DNA of 43,170 nucleotides from Chloroflexota bacterium (GTDB lineage Bacteria > Chloroflexota > Dehalococcoidia > Lucifugimonadales > UBA3495): contig PBMF01000009.1 in assembly GCA_002721995.1 (NCBI GenBank), positions 1-43,170 of the forward strand. The letters run 5' to 3'. Numbering within the stretch: position 1 is the stretch's first letter; each line of letters starts with the position of its first letter. Below are positions 23,474 through 40,205 of the stretch, in pieces. The notes under the pieces are model-generated. The model searched no databases and was not told the DNA's origin. It saw only the letters and a list, made by a program, of their open reading frames with translations. Both the position numbers and the translations under genes were made by a program.

Positions 23474-23751
23474 GCGGGAAATGGCTCACGGTCGTAAAAC
23501 AGGGCCGCCCAGAACCAGGAGCAGGTTGGAAGCCCGCTGCTAGGTATCTTCGTTGCCCACGATACAGGTACACTACGGCGTCAGTTCCAATTTGGATCGT
23601 AATAAACGTGCAAGCCAAAACCACGCCCTATGATCCATGTTGGGGTTTGACCCGTATATATGTCGATCGCGCGTTTTCCATGCGCTTGAACCTCGTTGGA
23701 CACTGGGTTTTAAGTCCGGTTCCGCCAAAAACTTATAAATTAACTACCAGC

Positions 23752-23924
23752 CATAGGTGGTCCCGAGAGATCGGGACTGAAAAGGGAAGCCGGTGAGATA
23801 CCGGCGCGGTCGCGCCACTGTAACTGGTGTAGCCCACCCCATGTAGCATCGCCACTACTCCGACGAGTCGGGGTGGGAATGCCGGGGTTAGGGACCGAAC
23901 CAGGAGCCAGGAGACCTGCCTATG
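23752..23924 (+). ncRNA. Cobalamin (B12) riboswitch
   Basis: All main conserved blocks are present: AGGGAAGCCGGTG-GATACCGG (about 23782-23803), GCGCGGTCGCGCCACTGTAA (about 23804-23823) and the B12 box AGCCAGGAGACCTGCC (23905-23920). The closing stem P1 can form between CATAGG (23752-23757) and CCTATG (23919-23924). The riboswitch binds adenosylcobalamin or a related cobalamin and normally turns off the gene behind it. Here that gene is a broken ABC-transporter binding protein. The region 23474-23751 upstream has no gene; a TATAAA at 23734-23739 could be its -10. Confidence 0.95.
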
Positions 23925-23978
23925 ACTTTCGCTTAATGCACTTCGCAGTTGAGGGTATGAGTAGCGGTTTCTTTTTTT

Positions 23979-29841: not shown

Positions 29842-31221
29842 TTACCCCCGCCGCCGTTGGTCGCGGTAGTTGGGGGCGGTTATGGGTTGCCAGTCTACGA
29901 CCATGCCGTCCACCAGCCGGGAGGCGATGCGGGACTTGGTGTCTTCCAGTTCGTCGATGGTGGAGGCAGTGGTGATGACCGTGGGCAGGCGTATCTCGTG
30001 GCGGTGGACCACGATCTGGTAGAGCTTCTCCTCGGCCCAGGCGGTGCTGCTCTCGGCGCCCAGGTCATCCAACACCAGCAGCGGCACCGAGTTCAACTGC
30101 TCGAACAACTCGTCGTAGCCGATGGGGCTGTCGGGGCTGAATGTGGCCCGCAGGTGGTCCAGCAGGGTGGGCACGAAGGCGAAGAAAACTTGAGAGCCCT
30201 GGCGCAGCCGTTCGCCGGCTATGGCCACCGCCAGGTGGGTCTTGCCGCAACCCCTTGGTCCGTTGAACAGGAGCCAGCCCTCGGGATCGGCAGCGAAGGT
30301 CTGGGCCGTGTGCATGGCCCGGTCCAGGGACTCCTGGTCCTGGGGGGTGGCGTTGGCCCCGCCCCGGGTGTCGAAGTTGTCGAAGGTCATCCGCTCCAGC
30401 ATCTCGGGCCGGACTTCGCCGATGCCCATGGCCAGACGGCTGTTGAAGTTGCCCAGTTGCAGCACTTTGGCGACGCCGTCGGAGTTCTCCAGCCGGGTGC
30501 GCAGGTTCTCGTCCAGACGCTGTAACGGCCCGCGCACGGTGACCACAGTGGGCAGCGAGTTGTTGTAGCGGTGGTTTATCACCTGGAACAGTTTCTCCTG
30601 GGCCCAAGGCGTGGCGCTGGCCATGCCCAGGTCGTCCAGCACCAACACGGGGACGTTCCTAACCTGCTCGAACAGTTCGTCGTAGGAGACCGGGTTGTCG
30701 GGTGAATAGGTGGCTCTTAGGTGGTCCAGCAGGTCGGCTGCCACGATGAAGAAGGTGGTCTGGTTCCTCTCGATGCACCTGTTGGCGATGGCCACGGCCA
30801 GGTGTGTCTTGCCGCTGGCGCTGGGGCCGGTGAGCACCAGCCATCCCTGGGGGTCATCGGCGAACTGGGCGGCCAACGCGGCGCTCTCCCGGAACAGCTT
30901 CTGGCTGGCTGCGTCGGGCAGCGGCCCGTCCAGGTTGGTGGTGGCGAAGGAGATGCGAGACAGCGCGCCCAGGTTGCTGTAGCGGCGCAGTGAAGCCAGG
31001 CGGGTGGTGGTGTCCTCGGTCTGCTGGCAGGTGCAGGGAATGGCCTGGCCGAATTCGGGGTGGCCTATGTGGACGCGGCGGGTGACCCAACCGCTGCCGT
31101 TGCACTGATGGCAGAGATCAACGGCCGGCTCGTTGTCGGGGAGTGTTACCCCGCCGCCGTTGGTAGTCTTCGAGATATTTCTGACGCTGATCCTTCTCAG
31201 TATGTCGCCCAGACTTTCCAT
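29842..31221 (-). CDS. DnaC/IstB-type helicase loader with two tandem AAA+ domains
   Basis: 459 residues, about twice the usual 250-330. Order: an N-terminal zinc-finger-like module (CHQC at residues 37-40 and CTC at 63-65), then AAA+ domain 1 with Walker A GPSASGKTHLA (about 132-142) and Walker B VLVLDDLG (about 192-199), then AAA+ domain 2 with Walker A GPRGCGKTHLA (about 321-331) and Walker B LLVLDDLG (about 381-388). The two domains share long near-identical stretches (LLDHLRAT-SPD-P--YDELFEQ), which argues for an internal duplication. Both Walker A and B are intact. It probably loads the DnaB helicase encoded just upstream. ATG 31221 is chosen; GTG 31245 is an alternative. The start overlaps the dnaD-like gene by 104 nt. 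Confidence 0.88.
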   Translation of the reverse strand: MESLGDILRRISVRNISKTTNGGGVTLPDNEPAVDLCHQCNGSGWVTRRVHIGHPEFGQAIPCTCQQTEDTTTRLASLRRYSNLGALSRISFATTNLDGPLPDAASQKLFRESAALAAQFADDPQGWLVLTGPSASGKTHLAVAIANRCIERNQTTFFIVAADLLDHLRATYSPDNPVSYDELFEQVRNVPVLVLDDLGMASATPWAQEKLFQVINHRYNNSLPTVVTVRGPLQRLDENLRTRLENSDGVAKVLQLGNFNSRLAMGIGEVRPEMLERMTFDNFDTRGGANATPQDQESLDRAMHTAQTFAADPEGWLLFNGPRGCGKTHLAVAIAGERLRQGSQVFFAFVPTLLDHLRATFSPDSPIGYDELFEQLNSVPLLVLDDLGAESSTAWAEEKLYQIVVHRHEIRLPTVITTASTIDELEDTKSRIASRLVDGMVVDWQPITAPNYRDQRRRG

Positions 31222-31891
31222 AATTCCCTTCTCCGACCTCCCCACTGGCGGCGTAGTCGCCCCTGTTTTCCTTGCCCTCGGCGGTCCAGCGCCTGAGGAT
31301 GCCGGCCACGTAACGCCAGCTTCGCTTGTTCTCCGCCACCGCGATGCCGAAGGCTTCCCGGAGCCACGACTCCGGGTACCGGGCCTCGGCCTCTTTCAGT
31401 TCCTCGGCCAGCAGGGGCGACAGGGCCCCGATGCCGTCCTCATAAAGTGCGAATATGTTGGGCTTGTCCAACTCCGGAGGCTCCCCTGCCCCCTCTTCAA
31501 TCTCGCTGGCTACTTCGCCGGTTTTCAGACGCGCGAGCGCCCTCCGGTCGGCTTCGGTGTTCAGCAGGAAAATCGTCTCCGTTCCGTCTGACCGGTTGGC
31601 CAACTGGTGGGTCAGGAAGGTGCCCCGGGTAACGGCCAGGCGCAGTCCCCGGCGTATCTCCTCGGCGGTGTCTTTGCCTTCGGACTTAAGTCCTTTGAGC
31701 AGCGTCCGGTCTGCCAGGAACTCGTCCAGGGAGACCGACCTTACCGGGCCGCGCTTGCGGTGGAACAGCCAGAGGCCACGGAGCGTAACCTTGAGTTCGG
31801 CCAGGTCTTGAATCTGCTCCAAGAGGGGGCCGAAGACAGGGTTGGGCACCGGTGTATAGAGCGTGCTCCCGGTAAAACCCGAGAATACCAT
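31118..31891 (-). CDS. DnaD-domain replication protein
   Basis: 257 residues. A winged-helix-like N-terminal part (about 1-100, with ELKVTLRGLWLFHRKRG and TRGTFLTHQLAN) is followed by a DnaD/DnaB2-type C-terminal domain: FALYEDGIGALSPLLAEELKE (about 150-170; key YE-x-GIG-LSP pattern), then YPESWLREAFGIAVAEN and SWRYVAGILRRW, which is the signature of the family. A basic, low-complexity tail ends in RRRGNTPRQRAGR. DnaD-type proteins act in primosome assembly at the origin. The gene starts 3 nt after the dnaB stop (coupled translation likely) and overlaps the dnaC-like gene by 104 nt at its end. Confidence 0.85.
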   Translation of the reverse strand: MVFSGFTGSTLYTPVPNPVFGPLLEQIQDLAELKVTLRGLWLFHRKRGPVRSVSLDEFLADRTLLKGLKSEGKDTAEEIRRGLRLAVTRGTFLTHQLANRSDGTETIFLLNTEADRRALARLKTGEVASEIEEGAGEPPELDKPNIFALYEDGIGALSPLLAEELKEAEARYPESWLREAFGIAVAENKRSWRYVAGILRRWTAEGKENRGDYAASGEVGEGNYGKSGRHTEKDQRQKYLEDYQRRRGNTPRQRAGR

Positions 31892-38266: not shown

Positions 38267-38340
38267 AGCAGTCGCCATGAAGTTCGAACCAGAGGCATCT
38301 TGCTTGGGAAGCAAGTACTCTACCCCTGAGTTACGCCCGC
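38267..38340 (-). tRNA. tRNA-Gly (CCC anticodon), degenerate, possibly a pseudo-tRNA
   Basis: On the - strand the 5' half is normal: acceptor GCGGGCG, D-arm TAACTCAGGGGTAGAGT, and anticodon arm CTTGC-TTCCCAA-GCAAG with anticodon CCC. The 3' half is not. The TTCGAAC loop is there, but the T-stem halves (TCTGG and TTCAT) do not pair, there are two extra bases, and the acceptor 3' strand CGACTGC has one mismatch and one G-U pair. CCA is not encoded. It may be a decayed gene or one whose 3' end was changed by recombination. A -10-like TATACT lies on the - strand at 38360-38365. Confidence 0.6.
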
Positions 38341-38416: not shown

Positions 38417-39853
38417 CTAACCTTTTCCCGCTTCTGCTCTTGCGGCCACACGTTCATCACGGCAATCACGCATGGCGATGGGAACTATCGTCCAGGAGAG
38501 CCGGTTGGGCTGGTTGGCTTGAAATACTTCCGCCGACTTCTGCAGCAGCTCGCGTTTAACCCCGGGACTTTTCAAAAGACCGACCGACTTCGCAGCCGTT
38601 GTCCCCTTTGCAAGCGAAAGGCGAACGTCGATCTCATCATCTTCTAGACCCTTGGCAGTCAGCACCAGCATGTCTGCGGCTAGAAGTTTCTCCCGCACTT
38701 GGTAGAAAACCTCACCGGCGACAGTCTCCAGGAAGAACCAATCCAAGAGCTCCTGCGGCGTAGGGAACTTGGAGCCGGGCTTCGATATGGCAGCCTCGTT
38801 GTAGAAATCTCTGACGTCGTCGGTGATGAACCGCAGTAACTGGGGCATCGGATGACTGAAGCCGTCTGGCACCGCCAATTCGCCGTCTACCGCGAACCTC
38901 GCCAACACCCTAAGCATCTCGTCCACCGAATCAGCTCCCTTACCGCTGGTGCCGACGGAGGTGCGGCCGCGTGTTCGCAGCCCTTCATCGAACCAGGGCC
39001 GAAGCAGCTGGGCTTCCTGTTGCAGTTGGGCCGTCAACGCGTCGGCCTCGCTCTCGGGGGCTGGAGCAGGGAAGGTTACCGGGCATGACCATGCCTCATC
39101 TTCGACAGCGTCATCACCCTCTTCGCCGTTGTAGTCGATCAACGCCGGGCCTGACGCCTGGTCCACGAGAGCCAAAGTGCTCCGGAGAACTTCAAGCTGA
39201 ATGTCAGGACGGCCTGGGGGGCCCAAAGGGCGGCCAAAATTGAACGGAACCCACAGCGCCCGCGGTGGCGCTGTGGCTTCAGTCACCGGCCTGACTAAAC
39301 TGATCTGGACCGTGGCAATCTCGGCGCCGCCGTCCGATACAGGCCGCTCGATGAACTGGGAGAGCACGCCTACGGCGCGTGTGCAGCCGGGTCAAACGGG
39401 AATCAGTAGAACCAGATCTACGTCGTCGTCCCGAAGCTGTTTACAGACCTCTTTCGCTGCCGGTTCCATGCGTTCGGGGGCTGTTGATCCCATGAAGGAG
39501 TAGTGCCAGTTCGAGACAGAACCGATCTCGCCTGAGTCCACAAGGGTCTGCAGGTGCTCTAGTGGAAAACAGACGTTCACGTCCTGCTGATAGGCGCTGC
39601 GATCGAAATTGACGCTTGAGTGGGTCATAGCCAGGTCGGCGTATGAGACATCGCCCGGAATGATCCGGTAATCGCCCTCGTGCCCTCCGAATGGTCGGTC
39701 ATCAGCGCGGTGGATCGCGGCCGTGGTTATGACTGCTATCCGGGCATCGGCTAGTCTGGGTGGTTCAACCCAGGCCGTCCGCTCGAAAGGCTGAAAAGCT
39801 CTTCTCGTGAAGTTTTCCTGTAGGGGTGGGGGAATATCTGCCCAACGGACCAT
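38417..39853 (-). CDS. Glycine/sarcosine/betaine/D-proline reductase selenoprotein B family, Sec-containing (TGA read-through)
   Basis: Two same-frame ORFs are separated by one TGA (39394-39392) and together give 478 residues with selenocysteine at position 154. The sequence around it is LLIPV-U-PGCT-RAVGVL, i.e. the UxxCT redox motif of GrdB/PrdB. Upstream are the family landmarks SYADLAMTHSSVNFDRSAYQ, then QDVNVCFPLEHL and WHYSFMGS; downstream are ISLVRPVTE, PPRALWVPFNFGRPLG and a longer C-terminal part (about 230-478). A SECIS-like hairpin follows the TGA. ATG 39853 has GAGG 7 nt upstream. Family enzymes reduce C-N or related bonds using a Sec/Cys pair; the substrate here is unknown. Sec machinery (selA, selB, selC, selD) is not in this window, so decoding is inferred. 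Confidence 0.85.
39365..39379 (-). promoter_or_regulatory. SECIS-like hairpin 3' of the in-frame TGA
   Basis: On the - strand CGCGCC-GTA-GGCGTG forms a 6-bp stem (one G-U) with a loop starting G-U. The loop G is the 19th base after the TGA, a distance usual for bacterial SECIS elements. It lies within the coding sequence, as bacterial SECIS elements do. Confidence 0.55.
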
Positions 39854-40003
39854 GCCGTGACCTCAATCTGAAGCGGTTCATGCCGCGGAGAAAATTGAAA
39901 CCCAGGAGTGATTCAGTCTATCACGGAAAAAAAGTGGCAAAAACTAATAATGGAAGCTTTAGGAGTAGGGGAGAAAAAGCCATTTCAGGCACGAATAAAA
40001 TGG

Positions 40004-40075
40004 TCGGGGTGGGGAGAATCGAACTCCCGACCTCCTGCTCCCAAAGCAGGCGCCCTACCGCTGGGCTACACCCCG
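40004..40075 (-). tRNA. tRNA-Pro (TGG anticodon)
   Basis: On the - strand: acceptor CGGGGTG / CACCCCG, discriminator A, encoded CCA (40003-40001). The anticodon stem CCTGC / GCAGG encloses TTTGGGA, anticodon TGG. The T-arm is TCGGGAGTTCGATTCTCCC-like with a standard TTCGA loop. Confidence 0.95.
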
Positions 40076-40133
40076 ATGATAAGAGAGAGACCCGGAGACC
40101 GGCTGGGCCGGTGAAAATGAGGAAGAAAAATGG

Positions 40134-40205
40134 TACCCCCGGAGAGGGTCGAACTCTCGTCTCCGGCTCCGGAGGCCGGCACTCTATCCACTGAGCTACA
40201 GGGGC
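40134..40205 (-). tRNA. tRNA-Arg (CCG anticodon)
   Basis: On the - strand: acceptor GCCCCTG with CGGGGGT (G-U at the end pair and at pair 6), discriminator A, encoded CCA (40133-40131). The anticodon stem CCGGC / GCCGG encloses CTCCGGA, anticodon CCG. It lies 58 nt upstream of tRNA-Pro on the same strand, so the two are probably co-transcribed. Confidence 0.94.

What the first reader, a model, noticed from the sequence alone, without database searches (positions are those of the whole stretch)
38417..39853. Predicted selenoprotein: GrdB/PrdB-type oxidoreductase read through an in-frame TGA
Two adjacent - strand ORFs lie in exactly the same frame and are split by one TGA. Sense translation on both sides is family-like, and the TGA stands at the redox position of the UxxCT motif (U-P-G-C-T). 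A 6-bp hairpin with a G-U-starting loop sits 18 nt after the TGA. An automatic annotation would call two hypothetical fragments or a pseudogene. Sec use is known for clostridial glycine and D-proline reductases; in a Chloroflexota-like aerobic-looking context it is unusual and suggests an uncharacterised Sec-dependent reductase.
Basis: partly seen in the sequence, partly recalled or inferred. Interest (0 to 1): 0.85.

Follow-up and report, generated by a model that had tools for sequence, protein, structure and literature searches.

The report
Two-domain PrdB-like selenoprotein without partner
An apparently broken gene in a marine Chloroflexota genome is one intact gene whose internal stop codon is read as the selenium amino acid selenocysteine; it belongs to a widespread, functionally unknown branch of the proline/glycine-reductase family that lacks the usual partner proteins and carries an extra domain of unknown kind.

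Summary
Window 38417-39853 (-) is one 478-codon frame with a single in-frame TGA (39392-39394). Every one of 45 homologous loci read has TGA at the same place, in a UPxC motif (Dehalococcoidia, Acidimicrobiia, Gammaproteobacteria). Selection against amino-acid change continues after the TGA. A hairpin 15-29 nt downstream, with a G-U-bearing loop, shows strong covariation and is kept in 24 of 26 further Sec genes; it is lost in a Cys homologue. The genome has selA, selB and a selD that itself carries a TGA. Its tRNA-Sec is seen only as the 3' 70 nt at a contig end; close relatives carry intact copies. So it is a selenoprotein with high confidence. Residues 33-232 are PrdB/GrdB-like; a helical domain (about 269-400) has no Pfam or PDB counterpart found here. 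No GrdE or PrdA partner was found in the genome, although GrdE was found in 8 other Chloroflexota. The two-domain form is a supported clade, all Sec, in a lineage with a haem-copper oxidase. Sec-containing 'PrdB' was already reported as abundant in seawater (2005, 2008). I therefore call it a new variant of a known kind; most likely a stand-alone selenol-thiol reductase, substrate unknown.

The parts
38417..39853 (-). coding sequence, 478 aa with Sec at residue 154; ATG at 39853, stop TAG at 38417-38419
   Evidence: homologous start (MVRW) and full-length relatives
39392..39394 (-). in-frame TGA read as selenocysteine, first residue of the U-P-G-C-T motif
39365..39379 (-). SECIS-like hairpin: covarying 5-bp stem with the G-U-bearing apical loop at 39370-39374
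39158..39757 (-). PrdB/GrdB-like alpha/beta domain, residues 33-232, carrying Sec154 and the resolving Cys157
   Evidence: searches (NCBIfam TIGR04483, below its cut-off; Pfam GRDB), model
38654..39049 (-). helical domain, residues about 269-400, with invariant or near-invariant E280, R297, G301, D346, E353, W372, T377, G380
   Evidence: no Pfam match, no clear fold match

Best explanation
The gene encodes an intact selenoprotein. The ribosome reads UGA as Sec at residue 154, directed by SelB bound to the hairpin just downstream. The product belongs to the PrdB/GrdB family but forms its own two-domain, Sec-only branch that works without a separate pyruvoyl/substrate-binding subunit (GrdE or PrdA). 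Most likely mechanism: the selenolate of Sec154 attacks an electrophilic centre of a small substrate held by the fused helical domain; Cys157 of the UPGC motif resolves the Se-substrate adduct, giving a selenenylsulfide; a dithiol reductant (a thioredoxin-like protein) regenerates it. Shown here (computationally): the reading frame, the UGA/Sec/Cys column, the hairpin, selA/B/D, the domain layout, the absence of detected partners, the clade. Inferred: the chemistry, the role of the helical domain, the reductant. Not known: the substrate. Confidence that it is a selenoprotein is about 0.98; the figure given here is for the whole statement including the mechanism.
For: TGA at the same column in 45 of 45 loci, UPxC throughout. 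Sec/Cys pair in one Chloroflexota family: L138 UPLCHRT against L135/L136 CPLCHRT. Hairpin: 97% of cells paired, 4 of 5 pairs with double changes, covariation 0.589 against 0.212 +/- 0.028 in shuffles and at most 0.168 in slid versions; found unprompted by RNAalifold; 24 of 26 further Sec genes keep all 5 pairs, the Cys homologue keeps 2. dN about 0.13-0.31 against near-saturated dS on both sides of the TGA. selA 563 bits, selB 343 bits, selD 372 bits with its own TGA. tRNA-Sec in relatives at about 66 bits; the window genome's C12 end has 70 identical nt. Family. No PF09338 in the own genome, but in 8 of 301 Chloroflexota; no PrdA over cut-off. Two-domain clade support 100/96, 61 rows, all Sec. 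COX1 533 bits. Mechanistic precedent: PMC10298544, PMC13188914.
Against: The own genome lacks a complete tRNA-Sec in the assembly (88% complete). The hairpin is not the minimum-energy fold of the window's own 51 nt. GrdE/PrdA absence rests on profile searches of incomplete genomes, and PrdA rang over cut-off nowhere, so its search has no true positive control. No structure or assay exists for this branch; a substrate-binding role for the helical domain is a guess. No protein evidence of read-through.
Confidence: 0.6

Rival explanations
1. It is a Sec-dependent thiol/peroxide oxidoreductase (redox or detoxification) rather than a C-X bond-cleaving reductase: the UPGC motif works like the UxxC of thioredoxin-like selenoproteins.
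For: UxxC motif; no amino-acid reductase partners; respiratory oxidase in the genome; most marine selenoproteins are thiol redox proteins (PMC2398784).
Against: Residues 33-232 match PrdB/GrdB/GrdF/GrdH profiles, not thioredoxin-like families; many invariant residues outside the motif (H78, D84, D91, R198) suggest a substrate pocket.
Confidence: 0.25
2. It is a true D-proline or glycine/betaine/sarcosine reductase B subunit whose GrdE/PrdA partner was missed because the genome is incomplete.
For: Best NCBIfam match is PrdB (93 bits); genome 88% complete.
Against: Far under cut-off (93 against 300; GrdB 31 against 602); PF09338 found in 8 of 301 Chloroflexota but not here, while homologues of this protein occur in 102 of 400; neighbours in the 14 related loci listed include no recognisable partner; fused extra domain absent from PrdB.
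Confidence: 0.08
3. A pseudogene or sequencing error: the TGA is a real stop, and the downstream part is a decaying or separate gene.
For: Gene callers see two ORFs; the downstream part has an internal GTG start.
Against: Same TGA in 45 of 45 loci; purifying selection after the TGA; covarying hairpin; Cys homologues at the same column.
Confidence: 0.01
4. UGA is read through as another residue (such as Trp by suppression or a changed code) and not as Sec.
For: Nothing specific.
Against: Homologues have Cys at this column; Sec machinery present; SECIS-like hairpin downstream.
Confidence: 0.01

Closest known systems
PrdB, Sec subunit of D-proline reductase (NCBIfam TIGR04483)
   Same: alpha/beta domain, position of Sec, UxxC motif
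   Different: scores 93 bits against a cut-off of 300; no PrdA found in the genome; extra C-terminal helical domain; genome encodes a respiratory oxidase
GrdB / GrdF / GrdH, Sec subunits of glycine, sarcosine and betaine reductases (PF07355, TIGR01917, TIGR01918, NF040794, NF040795)
   Same: Pfam GRDB passes its cut-off (27 against 22 bits); the match is to the C-terminal part of the profile, up to the Sec motif
   Different: lacks the N-terminal half of GrdB; no GrdE; all four NCBIfam scores below cut-off; different C-terminus
Marine Sec-containing 'PrdB' sequences of the Sargasso Sea and GOS surveys (PMC1088965: 42 genes; PMC2398784: 235 Sec and 110 Cys)
   Same: abundant marine, UxxC, assigned to the same family; very probably include this branch (inference, those sequences are not held)
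   Different: the passages read call them proline reductase and do not describe a fused second domain or a missing partner
FarB, GrdB-like Sec protein proposed for fluoroacetate reduction in Synergistota (PMC10838667)
   Same: suggests that the family may act on substrates other than amino acids
   Different: has a GrdE-type partner (FarE) and an anaerobic host

Membership tests
bacterial selenoprotein (UGA-encoded Sec) | in-frame UGA conserved, with Cys or Sec in homologues | tested here: met
bacterial selenoprotein (UGA-encoded Sec) | SECIS hairpin immediately downstream, G in apical loop | tested here: met
bacterial selenoprotein (UGA-encoded Sec) | selA, selB, selD in the genome | tested here: met
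bacterial selenoprotein (UGA-encoded Sec) | tRNA-Sec gene | tested here: inconclusive
   complete in same-genus relatives; own assembly holds the 3' 70 nt only, at a contig end
bacterial selenoprotein (UGA-encoded Sec) | read-through product contains selenium | not testable with these tools
   needs 75Se labelling or mass spectrometry
GRDB superfamily (PF07355) | profile score over the gathering cut-off | tested here: met
   27.1 against 22 bits; all 44 alignment members match at E <= 0.01
GRDB superfamily (PF07355) | catalytic chemistry (C-N or C-X cleavage through Sec) | not testable with these tools
   needs enzyme assays
D-proline reductase PrdB (TIGR04483) | equivalog score cut-off 300 bits | tested here: not met
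   93.4 bits
D-proline reductase PrdB (TIGR04483) | PrdA proprotein in the genome | tested here: inconclusive
   none in own genome, but no genome searched rang over cut-off, so no positive control
glycine/betaine/sarcosine reductase GrdB | NCBIfam cut-offs | tested here: not met
   30.8 against 602; 42.4 against 65.5; 50.6 against 775; 39.1 against 800
glycine/betaine/sarcosine reductase GrdB | GrdE-type partner (PF09338) | tested here: not met
   absent from own genome, present in 8 of 301 Chloroflexota in the same search; own genome is 88% complete

The most novel reading that the evidence does not exclude
A distinct enzyme class: single-chain, partner-free, Sec-dependent reductases made by respiring bacteria, which cleave a C-N, C-O or C-halogen bond of dissolved organic compounds without a pyruvoyl subunit, the substrate being held by a new helical domain.
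Probability: 0.25. Interest if true: 0.75.

Novelty: new variant of a known kind. Interest (0 to 1): 0.5.

Why it matters
Glycine and D-proline reductases are textbook enzymes of anaerobes that need a pyruvoyl-type partner. Here the Sec subunit stands alone with a fused domain, has four family members in one genome, and occurs in a lineage with a respiratory oxidase. All five matching NCBIfam models score it below cut-off, so automatic annotation probably splits or drops it, and its members are easy to overlook. If the two-domain clade is a stand-alone reductase, it would be a selenium-dependent activity in open-ocean bacteria whose substrate can be sought directly.

Tried and rejected
Solved-structure search by sequence found no relative (CopM at E 0.04 was taken as chance). 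Foldseek gave nothing at E < 0.001 for the whole model or the helical domain; VIA-align best Z 8.0 for the whole model (Rossmann-like folds of many unrelated families) and 3.7 for the helical domain, which the tool's own notes class as uninformative. Minimum-energy folding of the window alone did not pick the SECIS hairpin. tRNA-Sec: the best eight Rfam matches in the own genome were Ser, Leu, Arg or Gly tRNAs and the C12 fragment. Conserved operon: none shared by all; GMC oxidoreductase genes lie near 8 of the related loci in three different neighbourhoods, but not near the window gene, and luciferase-like monooxygenases near several; kept as a lead only. An sraL match (39179-39280, +) is below its gathering score and ignored. 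No paper found on SAR202 or Dehalococcoidia with this protein.

Full report
What was checked. The - strand of 38417-39853 is one frame of 478 codons from ATG (39853) to TAG (38417-38419), broken only by a TGA at codon 154 (39394-39392). Read as Sec it gives LLIPV-U-PGCTRAVGVL.

Is the TGA meaningful? In 99 related genomes, 66 have a homologue, and every match that covers residue 154 contains a TGA. I read 45 loci in detail, 30 of these and 15 from named records of Dehalococcoidia, other Chloroflexi, Acidimicrobiales/Ilumatobacteraceae, Gammaproteobacteria and one Actinomycetes: all 45 have UPxC at the same column. In the 44-row alignment the Sec column, P155 and C157 are invariant (the tool prints Sec as C). 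In Chloroflexota at large, 102 of 400 genomes have a homologue; two of them (L135, L136) have Cys where their near relative L138 has Sec, CPLCHRT against UPLCHRT. Against close orthologues the part after the TGA is 70-75% identical in amino acids, with differences mostly at third codon positions and dN of about 0.18-0.25, as against 0.13-0.17 before the TGA, with dS near or beyond saturation. This is the mark of one protein-coding gene throughout.

The hairpin. I aligned 45 nt from the TGA for 40 distinct genes; there are no gaps. A 5-bp stem at nt 15-19/25-29 (from the T of TGA, counted as 0) forms standard pairs in 97% of cells; four of five pairs have changes on both sides; the outermost pair alone occurs as CG, UA, AU, GC, GU and UG. 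The covariation score is 0.589 against 0.212 +/- 0.028 for shuffles and at most 0.168 for slid partners. RNAalifold finds exactly this stem unprompted. The structure was first seen in these same sequences, so I tested it on 26 further Sec genes, including the short forms: 24 keep all five pairs in the same register, while the one Cys homologue that the script picked up keeps two (one locus, L117, duplicates L049 of the first set, and L120 is close to it). The loop carries G-U in nearly all. Shuffle counts are not probabilities, because the sequences are related, but the held-out result and the slid controls agree. The window's own 51 nt do not prefer this fold by energy alone.

Machinery. The genome (2.57 Mb, 50 contigs, 88% complete) has selB (343 bits, cut-off 242), selA (563, cut-off 268) and selD (372, cut-off 125), the last with its own in-frame TGA (CAGUAAKL). 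tRNA-Sec is complete in relatives of the same genus at about 66 bits, and ARAGORN names all 20 fetched copies tRNA-SeC. In the window's genome the first bases of contig C12 hold the 3' part with anticodon TCA, 70 nt identical to relatives, but the 5' part differs. An assembly break, or the far end of an element inserted in this tRNA gene, would both explain it; not settled.

What the protein is. Pfam GRDB passes its cut-off (27.1 against 22), but the matched stretch is only residues 82-150; the best NCBIfam model is PrdB (residues 33-232, 93 bits, cut-off 300), and GrdB, GrdF, GrdH and the subfamily model also match below cut-off. So it is a family relative, not a proline or glycine reductase by curated standards. 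The AlphaFold2 model (mean pLDDT 84.9) has an alpha/beta domain with Sec154 at the start of a helix after a strand (strand 147-151, helix 155-169) and a helical domain at about 269-400; the C-terminal part was also folded alone with similar confidence (82.8). No Pfam family and no clear PDB fold was found for the helical domain; this does not show that the fold is new.

Its own branch. A tree of 81 rows separates two-domain proteins (61 rows, 358-480 aa except one cut by a contig end; support 100/96) from short PrdB-like ones (20 rows); all two-domain members are Sec, and both Cys members are short. The root is by midpoint, so the direction of the domain gain is not shown. The window's genome has four members: the window gene, a 65% identical paralogue (C25), a more distant two-domain one (C30) and a short one (C34). 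Sequences of Acidimicrobiia and Gammaproteobacteria sit inside the Chloroflexota-rich clade, which suggests transfer.

Partners and setting. PF09338 (GrdE) was not found in the own genome; the first search had no positive control, so I repeated it over 301 Chloroflexota genomes: 8 ring, several beside long GrdB-like matches, the own genome does not. PrdA gave no match over cut-off in any genome, so its absence here is weaker evidence. A COX1-family subunit at 533 bits indicates respiratory capacity. The genus contains a Dehalococcoidia MAG from Station ALOHA (inferred from the isolate name): L053 lies on a contig of 48,477 bases, the same length as G008:C77, and the two proteins are identical in the tree. 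The window gene stands between tRNA genes and unrelated enzymes (short-chain dehydrogenase, malate/lactate dehydrogenase), with no operon partner. Around eight related genes a GMC oxidoreductase lies within a few kb, in three different neighbourhoods; beside the C25 paralogue the order selenoprotein, PCC-domain protein, GMC oxidoreductase is on one strand with a gap of about 40 nt. My control set was small (138 kb; its one strong hit is the same C25 gene), so this is a lead, not a result.

Mechanism. In D-proline and glycine reductases Sec is held to attack a substrate activated by a carbonyl group (pyruvoyl in proline reductase), and a thiol then releases the product and leaves a selenenylsulfide (PMC10298544, which notes that parts of this mechanism are unproven). 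A GrdB-like protein has been proposed to cleave the C-F bond of fluoroacetate (PMC10838667). By analogy I propose Sec154 as the attacking selenolate, Cys157 as resolving thiol and a dithiol reductant, with the helical domain replacing the missing partner. Only the Sec, Cys and domain layout are shown; the rest is inference, about 0.6 as a whole.

Known or new. Sec-containing PrdB-family genes were reported as the third most abundant known selenoprotein family in the Sargasso Sea (42 genes, PMC1088965) and as 235 genes in GOS (PMC2398784). These surveys named them proline reductase; the parts I read do not mention a fused domain or the missing partner. A 2026 review lists D-proline reductase with UxxC under TIGR04483, and its text does not contain the word Chloroflexota or Chloroflexi (PMC13188914). 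So the Sec finding is a good confirmation of a known kind; the two-domain, partner-free, Sec-only clade is the new part.

Noticed in passing
L006 1-200 (G000:C12 start): 3' 70 nt of tRNA-Sec identical to relatives, but unrelated 5' sequence at the contig start, with a short reading frame ending just before it; several relatives' contigs also end near tRNA-Sec. May be the far end of an element inserted in this tRNA gene, or a misassembly.
   Followed up: partly
window 38267-38340 (-): tRNA-like sequence (Rfam tRNA 38.8 bits, anticodon loop CTTCCCAA, Gly-like) that ARAGORN does not call, just downstream of the selenoprotein gene; its 3' half looks irregular, perhaps a tRNA pseudogene or a junction.
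   Followed up: partly
window 40001-40205 (-): tRNA-Pro (TGG) and tRNA-Arg (CCG) directly upstream of the gene.
   Followed up: no
window 23738-23937 (+): cobalamin riboswitch, 108.7 bits (Rfam RF00174).
   Followed up: no
L092 4894-8495 (-): paralogue of the window gene in a compact one-strand cluster with a PCC-domain (DUF296) protein and a GMC oxidoreductase; GMC genes recur near seven other related loci.
   Followed up: partly
L101 8351-8782 (-): glyoxalase-superfamily gene 28 nt upstream of a selenoprotein paralogue, preceded on the same strand by a beta-lactamase-fold-like (by eye) and a carbon-nitrogen hydrolase gene; looks like a catabolic cluster.
   Followed up: partly
L020 1483-2529 (+): selD of this genome is itself a selenoprotein gene (in-frame TGA, CAGUAAKL).
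   Followed up: yes
window 29842-31245 (-): 467-aa ORF with two similar ATPase-like halves, each with a GKTHLAVAIA motif, as in a tandem duplication of a DnaC-like protein (seen by eye in the translation).
   Followed up: no
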